Assembly (NCBI GenBank): GCA_036397795.1
Contig: DASWIF010000015.1
Location: forward strand, 1-40,546
Direction: 5' to 3'
DNA length: 40,546 nt
Source: Candidatus Saccharimonadales bacterium
Lineage (GTDB): Bacteria; Patescibacteriota; Saccharimonadia; Saccharimonadales; DASWIF01
Position numbers and translations under genes: made by a program. The notes beneath the pieces are model-generated. The model did no database searches. It was not told the DNA's origin and saw only the letters and a list, made by a program, of their open reading frames with translations. Every line of letters starts with the position of its first letter. Positions within the stretch are counted from its first letter, which is position 1. Positions 29,673-36,012 of the stretch are shown here, piece by piece.

Positions 29673-30340
29673 AATGCAATTTCCCAAATCGTTTTGCCGC
29701 GTTCGGCCTGCTTGCTGGCAGAGCCAGCAACTCTGCCGATCGCTCATGGCGCATCGCATCGTCAGATGTTTACGGTGCTCACTCTCTGTACTTTACTGTA
29801 CAGTTCGTTCGAGCTCCGCACATCTTCCTTGCGCTGCACTCATGCAAAACAATTTGGAATAGATAGATTCGTAGCGATTGGCTTGGATGTAGCACAAGGA
29901 GAATTCGAGAAGTGTACTGAGGCGTACTAACGTACTCCGAGGGAGCCTCGCAGAGTTCGACGCAGTGATACGCCAAGAGTTTTACAGTGCAACCGGCTCT
30001 GCCGGCTGGCAGGTAAAACGGCCAAACGTTACGAAAACGTAAAAAGTTACTCAAGGGCACGCGATGGATGCCTTGACATAAGACACCGATAAAGGACGTA
30101 GCAGTCTGCGATAAGCTTCGGGGAGCTGACAAGCAAGCTTTGATCCGGAGATGTCCGAATGGGGAAACCCGGCTAGGGTCATGCCTAGTCACTATGCGTT
30201 GAATATATAGGCGCATCAGAGGTAAGCGCGGGAACTGAAACATCTTAGTACCGTGAGGAAATGAAAGTAACAACGATTCCGGTAGTAGCGGCGAGCGAAC
30301 CCGGAAGAGCCCAAACCTTACTTGTTTTCAAGTTAGGTGC

Positions 30341-30427
30341 TTCACACAGGAACTTTCAAACATTTACCATTTCTCATTTGAAATCAATGAAAAATGATAA
30401 TTGTAAATTGAAAATTCTTGTGTGAGG
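30341..30427 (+). repeat. 23S insertion 1 (domain I)
   Basis: A single long AT-rich hairpin: TTCACACA pairs with TGTGTGAG, TTTCAA with TTGAAA, ATTTAC with GTAAAT. Contains the shared words CATTTACCATTT and CTCATTT. Confidence 0.75.
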
Positions 30428-30849
30428 CGCCCCTTGAATAAGGTGGCAGCCGAACACAAGTAACGGGGTTGTGAGAACCAAACGACCAGGCAGGAATACT
30501 CGAGGTTCAATCGAGTCGTCCTGCTTGCGACGAAGCACTGCTATAAGCTTCGATGGAGTTACAAATCGTATGGCTAGCAGAAGTGGCTGGAAAGCCAAGC
30601 CAAAGAGGGTGAAAGCCCCGTACGCGAAAGCCATGCGACTTTAGATTTGGTAACAGTTCGACCTTAAAACCGAACTTCTCGAGTAGGACGGGACACGTGA
30701 AACCCTGTCTGAATCTGGGAGGACCACCTTCCAAGGCTAAATATGTCTTATGATCGATAGCGAACAAGTACCGTGAGGGAAAGGTGAAAAGAACCCCGGG
30801 AGGGGAGTGAAATAGAACCTGAAATCACGTGCCTACAAGGAGTCGGAGC

Positions 30850-30992
30850 GGGCTCTTCATTGCTGAAGAGCATATTCCATATAGCAAATAACATATAGCA
30901 AAGATTTAGCATATGACATATGACATATGTTATATCTCTGTAATATGACAATTGTAATTTGTAATATGGGCTCATCACCAGTGATGAGCCCG
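30850..30992 (+). repeat. 23S insertion 2 (helix 25, classical IVS site)
   Basis: Hairpin GCTCTTCA/TGAAGAGC, an AT-rich palindrome with CATATTCC, CATATGACATATG and ATATG repeats, then hairpin GGGCTCATCAC/GTGATGAGCCC. Flanks match E. coli 23S around 545, where intervening sequences occur in many bacteria. Confidence 0.8.
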
Positions 30993-31100
30993 TGACGGCG
31001 TGCTTTTTGTAGAACGATCCAGCGAGTTAATTTCTGTGGCGTCAGGTTAAGCGGTTAAAACCGCGGAGCCGTAGTGAAAGCGAGCCTTAATAGGGCGCAT

Positions 31101-31243
31101 TACATGAGACAATACCGAGAGTTTTTCAGTTAGGCTTTGTTACTCATAAATAAAATTTTACGAATTTACTTCGGAAAATTTTATCCTTTTTTGGAAAAAG
31201 AGCAGCGAAGCGATGAGAAAAAACCTTGGTTTTGTCTCATGTA
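31101..31243 (+). repeat. 23S insertion 3 (domain II, near E. coli 650)
   Basis: A perfect 12-bp outer stem TACATGAGACAA (31101-31112) / TTGTCTCATGTA (31232-31243) encloses about 120 nt with an inner TAAAATTTTACG/AAAATTTTATCC helix. Does not share the ATTTACC vocabulary. Confidence 0.75.
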
Positions 31244-31757
31244 GAGTCGCAGGGATTAGACCCGAAACCGGGTGACCTAACCATGGGCAGGTTGAAGCGA
31301 GCGTAACAGCTCGTGGAGGACCGCACCAGTACACCTTACAACGTGTTTGGATGACCTGTGGTTAGCGGTGAAATGCCAATCGAACCCGGAGATAGCTGGT
31401 TCTCCTCGAAATAGCTTTAGGGCTAGCGTCACGAACGTAGTTTGCGGGGGTAGAGCTCTGTTTAGGGATGGGGCGCTTACAGCGTACCCACTCTTGACAA
31501 ACTACGAATACCGCAAAAATTCATCGTGGCAGTCAGAACGGCGGGGCTAAGCTCGTCGCTCAAAAGGGAAACAGCCCAGACCACCAGCTAAGGTCCCTAA
31601 ATATATGCTCAGTGGGAAACGAGGTGGGGTTTCATAAACAGCGAGGATGTTGGCTTAGAAGCAGCCATACATTTAAAGAGTGCGTAACAGCTCACTCGTC
31701 AAGAGACCCTGCGCGGAAAATGTAACGGGGCTTAAGCATATTACCGAAGCTGTGGAA

Positions 31758-31883
31758 CCAGTGCTTTGCACTGGAACTGGCAACTGGCAACTAACAACTA
31801 TCAAGCAACTATTAATCGTTAAAAGTTAATAATTTGTTTGGTGGTTGACGGTTGTTAATTGATAGTTCCAGCGCAGCGCGCTG
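31758..31883 (+). repeat. 23S insertion 4 (helix 45, classical IVS site)
   Basis: Hairpin CCAGTGC/GCACTGG, AT-rich arms (GGCAACTAACAACTATCAA against TTGACGGTTGTTAATTGATA), then hairpin CCAGCGC/GCGCTGG. Flanks match E. coli 23S near 1170, the second classical IVS site. Confidence 0.8.
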
Positions 31884-33945: not shown

Positions 33946-34120
33946 TGTCTGGCGGGTAGTTTAACTGGGGCGGTTGCCTCCCAAAGAGTAGCGGAGGCGT
34001 TCAAAGGTTGGCTAGTCTCGGATGGAAATCGAGATGATAGTGCAAACGCATAAGCCAGCTTGACTGCGAGGGCTACAACCCAAGCAGGTACGAAAGTAGG
34101 AGTTAGTGATCCGTCGTTCC

Positions 34121-34248
34121 GTACGCTCTTCACTGCGTGAAGAGCATTTACCATTTTTCAATTTACATTTTTCATTTATGGAAAATACCGACAATGAGAA
34201 TTGAGAAACGATCAATGAAAATTACTCAGCGCGTAGCGATGAGCGTAC
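34121..34248 (+). repeat. 23S insertion 8 (domain V, helix 87-88 region)
   Basis: Outer GTACGCTC/GAGCGTAC stem, hairpin GCTCTTCA/TGAAGAGC, then ATTTACCATTTTTCAATTT and its partner CAATGAGAATTGAGAAACG. The hairpin plus ATTTACC start is nearly the same as in insertions 2 and 9, although these lie in different rRNA domains. Confidence 0.8.
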
Positions 34249-34347
34249 ATGAAAGTGGGATTGACGACGCAATCGGATAAAAGTTACCCCGGGGATAACA
34301 GGCTTATAGCGCCCAATAGTTCACATAGACGGCGCTGTTTGGCACCT

Positions 34348-35183
34348 TAAACATTGGGGTGCTGCAGGAGCAATCCTGCACCAACAATGTGGCTTATAAC
34401 GGTGAAACCCTAATACCTTTTGTGAAGTATAATAAGAGGTAAGGGCAATACCGTGGGAAGTCTAACGTCAGCACAAAACGCGATTTTAGTGGGTAGTCTT
34501 TTAGGTGATGGAACATTACGCCGGCAAGGCAATCGATTGAATGCTTTGCTCGAGGTAAATCACGCCTACAAGCAGAAAGATTATGTAGATTGGAAATATG
34601 GATATTTCCAGGACTACATACTTGCTAAACCCAAATCACGCCTCGGCAGAGGCACAAGAATCGCATATCGGTTCACAACCCGTAGTTTGCCGTTGTTTAC
34701 GGTTTACTACGAGCAGTTCTACCGAAACGGTAAGAAGATAATCCCGCTGGATTTGAAACTTGATCCGCTATCCTTGGCTGTTTGGTTTATGGATGACGGA
34801 ACCAGGATTCGCTCAGCTTATTATCTGAACACCCAGCAATTTACTTTGCCAGAACAAAAGTTCTTACAAAGTCTATTGTTGAAAAGTTTTGGCCTAGAAT
34901 CAGCTTTGAACCGAGACAAACATTACTTCAGGCTACGATTTACTATAGCTAGCTCAAGGGATTTGCATAATCTAATCGAGCCATACGTAGTAGGATCCAT
35001 GAGGTACAAGCTGAATAATGACCCCGTAACGACTGAGTCGAAAGACGAGATTCCGGTTATTTTGCCGGAATAACACGCCACCTCCTGTCATAAGAAAAGT
35101 TTAGATATGGCCTATCGGTCTAAGTTTAAGCGACAGGGAGAAGATATAGTCTACGCCATATGAAAATATGGAATTAACGACAG
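34348..35183 (+). other. Group I intron at 23S position 2500 (L2500)
   Basis: Upstream exon ends TTTGGCACCT and downstream exon starts CGATGTCGGCTC, restoring the peptidyl-transferase sequence around E. coli U2500. Internal guide GGGTGCT (34357-34363) pairs with exon GGCACCT with U-G at the splice site; the intron ends in G. The 3' core has AGAAGATATAGTC near 35139-35152 and a CCATATGAAAATATGG hairpin. Confidence 0.92.
34453..35073 (+). CDS. LAGLIDADG homing endonuclease, double motif, in the L2500 intron
   Basis: 206 residues with two LAGLIDADG motifs, ILVGSLLGDGTL (11-22) and LAVWFMDDGTR (108-118), the pattern of the LAGLIDADG_2 family (PF03161), and therefore probably acting as a monomer. 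It would cut intron-less 23S genes near position 2500. GTG start at 34453, with GAGGTAAGGG 8-17 bases upstream. It is of a different subfamily from the L1931 enzyme, so the two introns were acquired independently. Confidence 0.9.
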   Translation: MGSLTSAQNAILVGSLLGDGTLRRQGNRLNALLEVNHAYKQKDYVDWKYGYFQDYILAKPKSRLGRGTRIAYRFTTRSLPLFTVYYEQFYRNGKKIIPLDLKLDPLSLAVWFMDDGTRIRSAYYLNTQQFTLPEQKFLQSLLLKSFGLESALNRDKHYFRLRFTIASSRDLHNLIEPYVVGSMRYKLNNDPVTTESKDEIPVILPE

Positions 35184-35474
35184 CGATGTCGGCTCATCAT
35201 ATCCTGGGGGGGAAGCACCTCCCAAGGGTTCGGCTGTTCGCCGATTAAAATGGTACGCGAGCTGGGTTCAGAACGTCGTGAGACAGTTCGGTTTATATCC
35301 GGTGTGGACGCAAGGAAACTTGAGGGGAGTCTTCTCTAGTACGAGAGGACCGAGAAGAACGAACCGCTGGTGTACGGGTTGTGGTACCAACTGCATTGCC
35401 CGGTAGCTACGTTCGGACAGGATAAGCGCTGAAAGCATCTCAAGCGCGAAGCCCACCCCAAGATTAGGTTTCCC

Positions 35475-35645
35475 GCAGCTTCTCACTTGCGTGAGAAGTA
35501 TTTACCATTGACCATTTTGCAAATAGCATTAATATTTCATCTGGCATTTTTCATTGCGGTCGCAATTGTTAAAAGCTACATGATAAATAAATGTAAATTG
35601 TGAATTGTAAAATGATAATTGCTCGTCGCGTGGGCGAGGAGCTGC
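35475..35645 (+). repeat. 23S insertion 9 (helix 98 region)
   Basis: Outer GCAGCT/AGCTGC pairing, hairpin CTTCTCA/TGAGAAG, then TATTTACCATTGACCATTTTG and its partner, then hairpin GCTCGTCGC/GGGCGAGGAGC. Shares the hairpin plus ATTTACC pattern with insertions 2 and 8. Confidence 0.78.
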
Positions 35646-36012
35646 AGAGCCCCCTGAAAGACTATCAGGTTGATAGGCGCTAGGTGTAAGTGCGGTAACG
35701 CATTCAGCCGAGGCGTACTAATAGGGCCATTGACTTTTTACGGCCAGGAAATTTTGGTCGCAACACCTGCCCATGAACCAAGTTCATGGCCCGTGTTGCA
35801 TGCGATGCATTTCTTCGTTAGAAGCTTGCATGCTTCGGGCGGCAGTACTTTTGTACAGCCACCCCAGCGCTTCGCTTCTGCCTCGAACTGCATTCGCCCA
35901 AAATTCCCTGGTATAAAGCTAGGATTTTGTAGTTGGATCCCATCCAACCTCAACTCCCTGGTAACAGGTAAATTGCATAACCAGAAATTTCGCATACGTG
36001 CGAGATTCTGGA

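What the first reader, a model, noticed from the sequence alone, without database searches (positions are those of the whole stretch)
30041..35740. A 23S gene with two group I introns and about nine palindromic insertions
Aligning remembered E. coli 23S to this gene, extra sequence appears at nine variable helix tips plus introns at 1931 and 2500. Insertions 2 and 4 sit at helices 25 and 45, the classical intervening-sequence (IVS) sites cut out by RNase III without religation in other bacteria. If all nine are excised, mature 23S would be a set of about ten fragments. That is far beyond the usual one or two.
Basis: partly seen in the sequence, partly recalled or inferred. Interest (0 to 1): 0.85.

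Follow-up and report, generated by a model that had tools for sequence, protein, structure and literature searches.

The report
Saccharibacterial 23S gene packed with hairpins
A large ribosomal RNA gene from an uncultured Saccharibacterium has grown to twice normal length: two homing introns and nine long hairpins sit in it, eight built from degenerate seven-base repeats and one holding a mobile RNA element that is scattered through related genomes; whether the cell cuts the hairpins out is unknown.

Summary
The 23S gene (30040-35742, single copy) carries nine non-intron insertions of about 79-153 nt at helix tips plus two LAGLIDADG group I introns after U1931 and U2500. The genome belongs to order Saccharimonadales, a clade reported to have almost no rRNA introns.

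The "ten-piece 23S" reading is untested. A complete RNase III gene exists, but predicted stems range from strong (H45, H63, H31, H79) to weak (H58, H88), and two sites are expanded in most order relatives.

What is new is what the insertions are. Eight show internal repetition at a period of exactly 7 nt (or 14); no other lag from 5 to 12 gives a signal in any of 22 genes. They are degenerate heptanucleotide palindromes like those in Nostoc trnL introns; the genome also holds intergenic relatives, and one related gene has near-identical copies at H25 and H45. The ninth contains a ~75-nt structured element ("X", not in Rfam) dispersed through Saccharibacteria, often 4-20 nt upstream of tRNA genes and, in 13 of 79 copies, flanked by direct repeats (mostly 15-54 nt), so it is mobile. 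In other genomes X sits at H25, H45, H63 and H79.

Verdict: a new variant of known CPR rRNA insertions, now with an origin.

The parts
30040..35742 (+). 23S rRNA gene, single copy, 5703 nt
   Evidence: Rfam RF02541 full-length match
30336..30434 (+). insertion 1, H16-H18 region (E. coli ~290): heptad palindrome; the surrounding expansion to 30572 is order-wide
   Evidence: lag-7 repeat 30386-30416; z -8.6
30645..30673 (+). small 29-nt insertion at E. coli 362
30854..30983 (+). insertion 2, H25 (E. coli 544), classical IVS site: heptad palindrome
   Evidence: lag 7, p=0.003; repeat 30871-30935; z -5.8
31101..31244 (+). insertion 3, E. coli 654 (near H31): palindrome containing element X; no heptad signal
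   Evidence: z -9.2
31190..31242 (+). core of element X (first hairpin reduced)
   Evidence: CM R1, E 1.3e-7 in whole genome, 1e-7
31765..31873 (+). insertion 4, H45 (E. coli 1172), classical IVS site: heptad palindrome
   Evidence: lag 7, p=0.003; z -10.1
32194..32299 (+). insertion 5, H58 (E. coli 1492): heptad palindrome
   Evidence: lag 14, p=0.003; lag-7 repeat 32245-32293; z -5.6
32545..32623 (+). insertion 6, H63 (E. coli 1726): palindrome with 14-nt period; site expanded in most relatives
   Evidence: lag 14, p=0.003; best dispersed match E 9e-6 at C40:15411; z -5.5
32820..33517 (+). group I intron after U1931 (698 nt)
   Evidence: RF00028 37.5 bits, E 2.2e-7, below gathering score; core strands UCAGAGACUA and AAGAUAUAGUC aligned; P1 CUAAGGU/GCCUUAG with U.G at the splice site and terminal G read from sequence
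32907..33434 (+). LAGLIDADG_1 homing endonuclease, 175 aa, single domain
   Evidence: PF00961 E 7.3e-26; I-OnuI/I-PanMI-type PDB relatives
33800..33930 (+). insertion 7, H79 (E. coli 2213): heptad palindrome
   Evidence: lag 7, p=0.003; z -3.4
34122..34252 (+). insertion 8, H88 (E. coli 2404): heptad palindrome in place of a ~15-nt hairpin of relatives
   Evidence: lag 7, p=0.003; no insertion over 22 nt there in 21 relatives
34348..35183 (+). group I intron after U2500 (836 nt)
   Evidence: RF00028 30 bits, E 4.1e-5, below gathering score; P1 CACCU/GGGUG with U.G and terminal G; same exon junctions around related endonucleases in other CPR
34453..35073 (+). LAGLIDADG_2 homing endonuclease, 206 aa
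   Evidence: PF03161 E 8.4e-42; I-SceI relatives in PDB
35484..35636 (+). insertion 9, H98 (E. coli 2798): heptad palindrome; the relatives shown lack the H98 hairpin
   Evidence: lag 7, p=0.013; z -3.9
25560..25700 (+). heptad palindrome inside the 16S gene (early variable helix, probably h6)
   Evidence: lag 7/14 repeats 25582-25607 and 25648-25679; fold
36133..36162 (+). heptad repeat in the 23S-5S spacer
   Evidence: lag 7 and 14

Best explanation
The nine insertions are hairpin repeats of two genome-dispersed kinds that have accumulated at surface helix tips of a single-copy 23S gene in a Saccharimonadales genome. Eight are degenerate heptanucleotide-repeat palindromes: arms made of approximate 7-nt units facing their complements. 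They most likely arise by copying of such hairpins between loci and helix tips, and then lengthen or shorten by 7-nt slippage. The ninth (E654) holds a shortened copy of a mobile structured-RNA element, X, which elsewhere in Saccharibacteria inserts upstream of tRNAs, between genes and into several 23S helices, with long direct repeats (mostly 15-54 nt) around some copies. A palindrome in a loop only extends an existing stem, so the ribosome core still folds (inferred). Two ordinary homing group I introns sit in domains IV-V near the peptidyl-transferase centre and must be spliced (inferred). RNase III probably nicks the strongest stems (H45, H63, H31, H79, perhaps H25) while weaker ones may stay as extended stems (inferred, about 0.5). 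Shown: positions, folds, 7-nt periodicity, dispersed relatives, X mobility, RNase III gene. Inferred: the mechanism of spread, and RNA processing.
For: Eight of nine inserts have direct self-similarity at lag 7 or 14, p<=0.013 each against 300 dinucleotide shuffles. Across 22 23S genes plus E. coli, lag 7 gives 18 segments in six genes; lags 5, 6 and 8-12 give none; the simulated null gives 0-1 in total. Own genome: a whole-genome search with the inserts finds five non-rRNA matches at E<0.01; a dinucleotide-shuffled query finds nothing below E 2.5; intergenic heptad repeats elsewhere. L017 has 93.5% identical cores (77 nt) at H25 and H45 of one gene. Element X: same sequence at different 23S sites and in both orientations in different genomes; dispersed in 27 of 61 order genomes; 73 exact stretches in GTDB, nearly all titled Saccharibacteria/Saccharimonadia; flanking direct repeats in 13 of 79 copies against 1 of 235 swapped-flank controls; covarying structure, 98.2% of cells paired, 15 of 19 pairs with two-sided changes. 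RNase III complete.
Against: No RNA data. For the heptad class, transfer between loci is shown directly only in L017; four inserts have no significant dispersed match in the sampled stretches. In that sample several contigs were picked because of earlier hits; the whole-genome comparison is not biased in that way but used one shuffle. Two sites (E290, E1726) are expanded in most relatives. The window's copy of X has no visible target duplication. No Y1 transposase was found in the genome, so no mover is known.
Confidence: 0.72

Rival explanations
1. All or nearly all nine insertions are true IVSs: RNase III cuts each stem without religation and mature 23S is about ten pieces held by base pairing.
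For: H25 and H45 are known IVS sites; RNase III with dsRBD is present; all inserts are strongly folded; PMC11270868 thinks CPR short insertions at the known IVS sites are probably IVSs.
Against: Stems differ greatly: H58 12 bp, H88 17 bp, H98 19 bp as longest near-continuous helix, while the Coxiella IVS that is cut has a 28-bp stem. No RNA evidence.
Confidence: 0.15
2. The insertions are ordinary expansion segments that evolved in place, stay in mature rRNA, and have no link with mobile elements.
For: E290 and E1726 are expanded in most relatives, with related sequences between relatives.
Against: The other sites hold an insert of 70 nt or more in 0-4 of 21 relatives (H79: 6); sequences are shared between different sites and with intergenic DNA; X is a dispersed mobile element.
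Confidence: 0.1
3. X is not (or no longer) mobile: it is a conserved regulatory or processing RNA in leaders of tRNA, rRNA and ribosomal-protein genes, and its 23S copies serve the same role.
For: 19 of 73 copies lie upstream of a tRNA on the same strand, 18 of them within 4-20 nt, against 0.9% at random; strong covariation; copies beside a ribosomal protein operon with an L10 leader in two genomes.
Against: Different tRNAs in different genomes, flanking direct repeats, both orientations in 23S, patchy presence. Mobility and a function as a leader can both be true.
Confidence: 0.15
4. Assembly artefact or 23S pseudogene.
For: The genome is a fragmented assembly of 80 contigs.
Against: The gene lies inside one 40.5-kb contig between 16S, tRNA-Ala, tRNA-Ile and 5S; core 77-84% identical to order relatives; full-length Rfam match; only 23S in the genome.
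Confidence: 0.03

Closest known systems
CPR rRNA insertion sequences (Tsurumaki et al. 2024, PMC11270868)
   Same: Many insertions per 23S gene, short ORF-less ones at the known IVS sites plus LAGLIDADG group I introns at conserved sites.
   Different: That paper calls the short ones uncharacterised and treats Saccharibacteria as lacking introns and endonucleases; here two introns occur in this clade and the short insertions are resolved into heptad palindromes and element X. The words 'palindrom' and 'repeat' do not occur in its main text.
Bacterial 23S intervening sequences, e.g. Coxiella burnetii (PMC4990558)
   Same: Stem-loops at H45 (and H25 in other bacteria); RNase III is available.
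   Different: Nine rather than one or two; no room for an S23p ORF; excision not shown; sequences related to genome-wide hairpin repeats.
Heptanucleotide-repeat stems of the Nostoc trnL intron P6b (PMC4476775) and cyanobacterial STRR repeats (the latter from memory)
   Same: Stems in structured RNAs built from degenerate 7-nt units with complements, varying by whole units.
   Different: Different unit sequences, different phylum, and many helices of one rRNA rather than one intron stem; works like, not shown to be related.
Rickettsia palindromic elements, REP/MITE-type repeats (from memory)
   Same: Small palindromic dispersed repeats that also enter RNA genes.
   Different: X is asymmetric with two hairpins, no classical terminal inverted repeats, long variable flanking repeats, and a preference for tRNA 5' flanks.
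LAGLIDADG group I introns L1931 and L2500
   Same: Sites, P1 pairing, core strands, endonucleases of the I-OnuI and I-SceI kinds.
   Different: Unusual only for being in Saccharimonadales; the L2500 endonuclease has its nearest relatives (62-68% identity) outside the class.

Membership tests
RNase III-excised 23S intervening sequence | extra stem-loop at a variable helix tip such as H25 or H45 | tested here: met
RNase III-excised 23S intervening sequence | long complementary termini fit for RNase III | tested here: inconclusive
   29-33 bp near-continuous at H31, H45, H63, H79; 12-21 bp at the others
RNase III-excised 23S intervening sequence | RNase III present | tested here: met
   PF14622 E 1.5e-42 and dsrm E 3.6e-16
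RNase III-excised 23S intervening sequence | removal without religation, fragmented 23S | not testable with these tools
   needs RNA
group I intron (both) | conserved catalytic core, P1 with U.G at the 5' splice site, terminal G | tested here: met
   RF00028 at E 2.2e-7 and 4.1e-5, both below the gathering score of 50 bits; P1 and terminal G from sequence
group I intron (both) | self-splicing | not testable with these tools
   needs an in vitro assay
LAGLIDADG homing endonuclease | LAGLIDADG domain above the curated cut-off | tested here: met
   PF00961 and PF03161
heptanucleotide-repeat stems (Nostoc P6b type) | stem built from degenerate 7-nt direct repeats with complements | tested here: met
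heptanucleotide-repeat stems (Nostoc P6b type) | common ancestry with the cyanobacterial motifs TDNGATT or NNTGAGT | not tested
   unit sequences differ by eye; claimed only as 'works like'
mobile repeat (element X) | multiple dispersed copies with target duplications | tested here: met
classical MITE (element X) | terminal inverted repeats and short fixed target duplication | tested here: not met
   conserved core is asymmetric; flanking repeats are long and variable
REP/RAYT system (element X) | Y1 transposase in the genome | tested here: not met
   PF01797: none in own genome, 17 of 61 relatives, no clear link with X

The most novel reading that the evidence does not exclude
X is an RNA-copied, SINE-like mobile element of Saccharibacteria (structured RNA, tRNA-gene association, long variable target duplications) that, together with heptad hairpins, has colonised stable-RNA genes, and the window's mature 23S rRNA works as about ten pieces after RNase III trimming.
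Probability: 0.08. Interest if true: 0.92.

Novelty: new variant of a known kind. Interest (0 to 1): 0.62.

Why it matters
The short rRNA insertions of CPR bacteria were counted but not explained. Here they resolve into two recognisable classes of dispersed hairpin, one of them a mobile element with long target duplications, in the CPR group that was thought to be nearly free of rRNA introns and that has cultured members. X sits at the classical H25 site in a human oral TM7 (HOT-348 single-cell genome, L160), so whether a mobile hairpin is excised from working rRNA can be tested.

Tried and rejected
The first alignment had eight relatives in the wrong orientation; redone. X as a known RNA: no Rfam family at E<=0.1 over 15 loci. 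X spread by RAYT transposase: absent from own genome and not associated in relatives. X carried by viruses: no exact match in viral contigs. Insertions in RNase P RNA or tmRNA of the window: nothing of the heptad kind seen. Micro-RNA family matches to the inserts are below gathering score and only reflect long hairpins. Literature searches for palindromic repeats in Patescibacteria found nothing on point. L005 (G033, 2865 bits, 69% identity to the window gene) looks like a foreign 23S and was not relied on.
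Full report
OBSERVATION. The window holds an rRNA operon: 16S 25484-27086, tRNA-Ala, tRNA-Ile, 23S 30040-35742, 5S 36178-36288. The 23S is the only one in a 779-kb, 80-contig genome. Against E. coli and 21 order relatives, correctly oriented, it has twelve insertions of 20 nt or more: two introns, one of 29 nt, and nine of 79-241 nt. At E290 the figure of 241 nt includes an expansion found in the relatives, and the palindrome itself is about 99 nt. With 5703 nt it is the longest of the set (the others are at most 3946 nt) and has the most insertions of at least 80 nt (10 by the count, introns included; the next has 6).

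WHICH ORGANISM. The window is therefore in order Saccharimonadales. The survey of CPR rRNA insertions reports that 64 of 66 insertions in Saccharibacteria were short, without introns or endonucleases, and discusses their absence there (PMC11270868).

INTRONS. Intron 1 is 32820-33517, after U1931; intron 2 is 34348-35183, after U2500. Both match RF00028 at low E but below the gathering score; the core strands line up, P1 pairs with a U.G at the splice site, and each ends in G (read). The endonucleases are LAGLIDADG_1 (I-OnuI-like) and LAGLIDADG_2 (I-SceI-like). Relatives of the second are patchy across CPR (31 of 287 genomes, own included; nearest 68%, outside the class), and seven of the eleven other loci fetched carry it between the same U2500 exon junctions, 823-901 nt apart. 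In the order, L024 also has an intron at 1931 and five relatives have one at 1951. The introns are of an ordinary CPR type, probably acquired horizontally (inference).

THE NINE HAIRPINS. All fold better than every shuffle. Eight of the nine repeat themselves at a lag of 7 or 14 nt, p<=0.013 each; the exception is E654. Over all genes only lag 7 shows any signal: 6 segments in the window, 5 in L017, 3 in L023, 2 in L018, 1 each in L007 and L011; the null is 0-1 in total; E. coli has none. The window's 16S gene and 23S-5S spacer have further examples. Outside rRNA, 298 kb of own-genome stretches contain seven lag-7 segments at score 12 or more, four of them intergenic, against five in the 5.7-kb 23S gene at the same score, so they are strongly concentrated in 23S. 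Several of those contigs were chosen because they had matched the inserts, which if anything understates the concentration. A whole-genome search with the inserts gives five non-rRNA matches at E<0.01 (C40, C4 twice, C37, C2) and none below 2.5 with a shuffled query. Within the sampled stretches, five of nine inserts reach p<=0.03 against 100 shuffles each (same selection caveat). In L017 the inserts at H25 and H45 are 93.5% identical over 77 nt, direct evidence of copying between helices.

ELEMENT X. Insert E654 ends in a sequence shared with L018 at E290, L016 at E1172 and (inverted) E2213; L010 at E1726 (inverted) belongs to the same set. Its consensus is AAGGGAAAAGAGCAGCCCG-[hairpin of variable sequence]-CGGCGCGATGAGAAAAACCGTAGGTTTGTCTCAT. 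It occurs in 27 of 61 order genomes, up to 11 copies by BLAST and 16 by covariance model in G005. An exact search over GTDB gave 73 stretches, nearly all Saccharibacteria. It has no Rfam family. Covariation is strong, though on a model-fitted alignment. Of 73 copies, 48 were classed intergenic, 18 inside predicted ORFs (random positions: 78% in ORFs) and 7 near 23S-like sequence; that last class is inflated, because some hits were to X copies inside the reference 23S genes. Nineteen lie upstream of a tRNA on the same strand, 18 of them within 4-20 nt. In 13 of 79 copies the flanks share direct repeats, against 1 of 235 with swapped flanks; one (L212, 80 nt) and perhaps a second (L174) reflect tRNA genes on both sides rather than insertion, the rest are 18-54 nt. 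The cleanest are L178 (54 nt, 98%), L157 (50 nt, 100%), L047 (50 nt, 96%) and L156 (37 nt, 97%). X is mobile. In 23S it is at H25 in an oral TM7 single-cell genome (L160) and in L208, and at H79 in L039. One copy lies beside a cobalamin riboswitch-like sequence in G030 (L064/L191, by eye), and a diverged X-like sequence overlaps a sub-threshold AdoCbl-II match in the window's own genome (L084).

HOW IT LIKELY WORKS. Helix tips on the ribosome surface tolerate extra hairpins, so palindromes that land there survive while those elsewhere in 23S do not (inference). Heptad units let both arms grow or shrink while staying complementary, as in Nostoc P6b stems built on the 7-nt motifs TDNGATT or NNTGAGT (PMC4476775). 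A complete RNase III is encoded. Predicted near-continuous helices are 33 bp at H45, 32 at H63, 29 at H31 and H79, 21 at H25, 20 at H16-18, 19 at H98, 17 at H88 and 12 at H58. I expect some to be trimmed and some retained; excision of all nine is possible but less likely.

NOVELTY. Multiple insertions in CPR 23S are known; the number here is not a record. New are the two classes, their dispersal, the mobility of X, and two endonuclease introns in a clade said to lack them. Limits: no RNA, a fragmented genome, alignment borders good to a few nt, periodicity p-values limited by 300 shuffles, one shuffled whole-genome control, and literature limited to open PMC papers.

Noticed in passing
L178, L157, L047, L156, L200, L215, L194 (flanks of element X): Element X copies flanked by 29-54-nt direct repeats, 84-100% identical, some duplicating the 3' end of a gene so that it stays intact; an unusually long and variable target duplication.
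   Followed up: partly
L152-L224: Element X sits 4-20 nt upstream of many different tRNA genes on the same strand, often just downstream of a -10-like TATAAT; it could act as a tRNA leader.
   Followed up: partly
window 28144-28171, 28332-28345, 28416-28435: Partial duplicates of the intact tRNA-Ile gene (28207-28283) lie on both sides of it in the 16S-23S spacer: a 28-nt exact copy of its 5' part upstream, and 14-nt and 20-nt near-copies of 3' pieces downstream; they look like insertion scars.
   Followed up: no
window 25560-25700: Heptad palindrome inside the 16S gene, so the same hairpin class is in both large rRNAs.
   Followed up: partly
L015 E654, L016 E172, L018 E1581: A second palindromic family (core AATCAGCTGCCTGAAACGGCGG...) shared between three different 23S sites in three genomes, 75-83% identical.
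   Followed up: no
L084 and L064/L191: X or X-like sequences beside cobalamin riboswitch-like sequences.
   Followed up: no
G190, G319 (family f98, another class): Several weak ~48-nt matches to the X model, the same shortened form as in the window; X may reach beyond Saccharibacteria.
   Followed up: no
many relatives: Y1_Tnp (RAYT-like, ~210 aa) genes occur in 17 of 61 genomes of this order but none was found in the window's genome.
   Followed up: no
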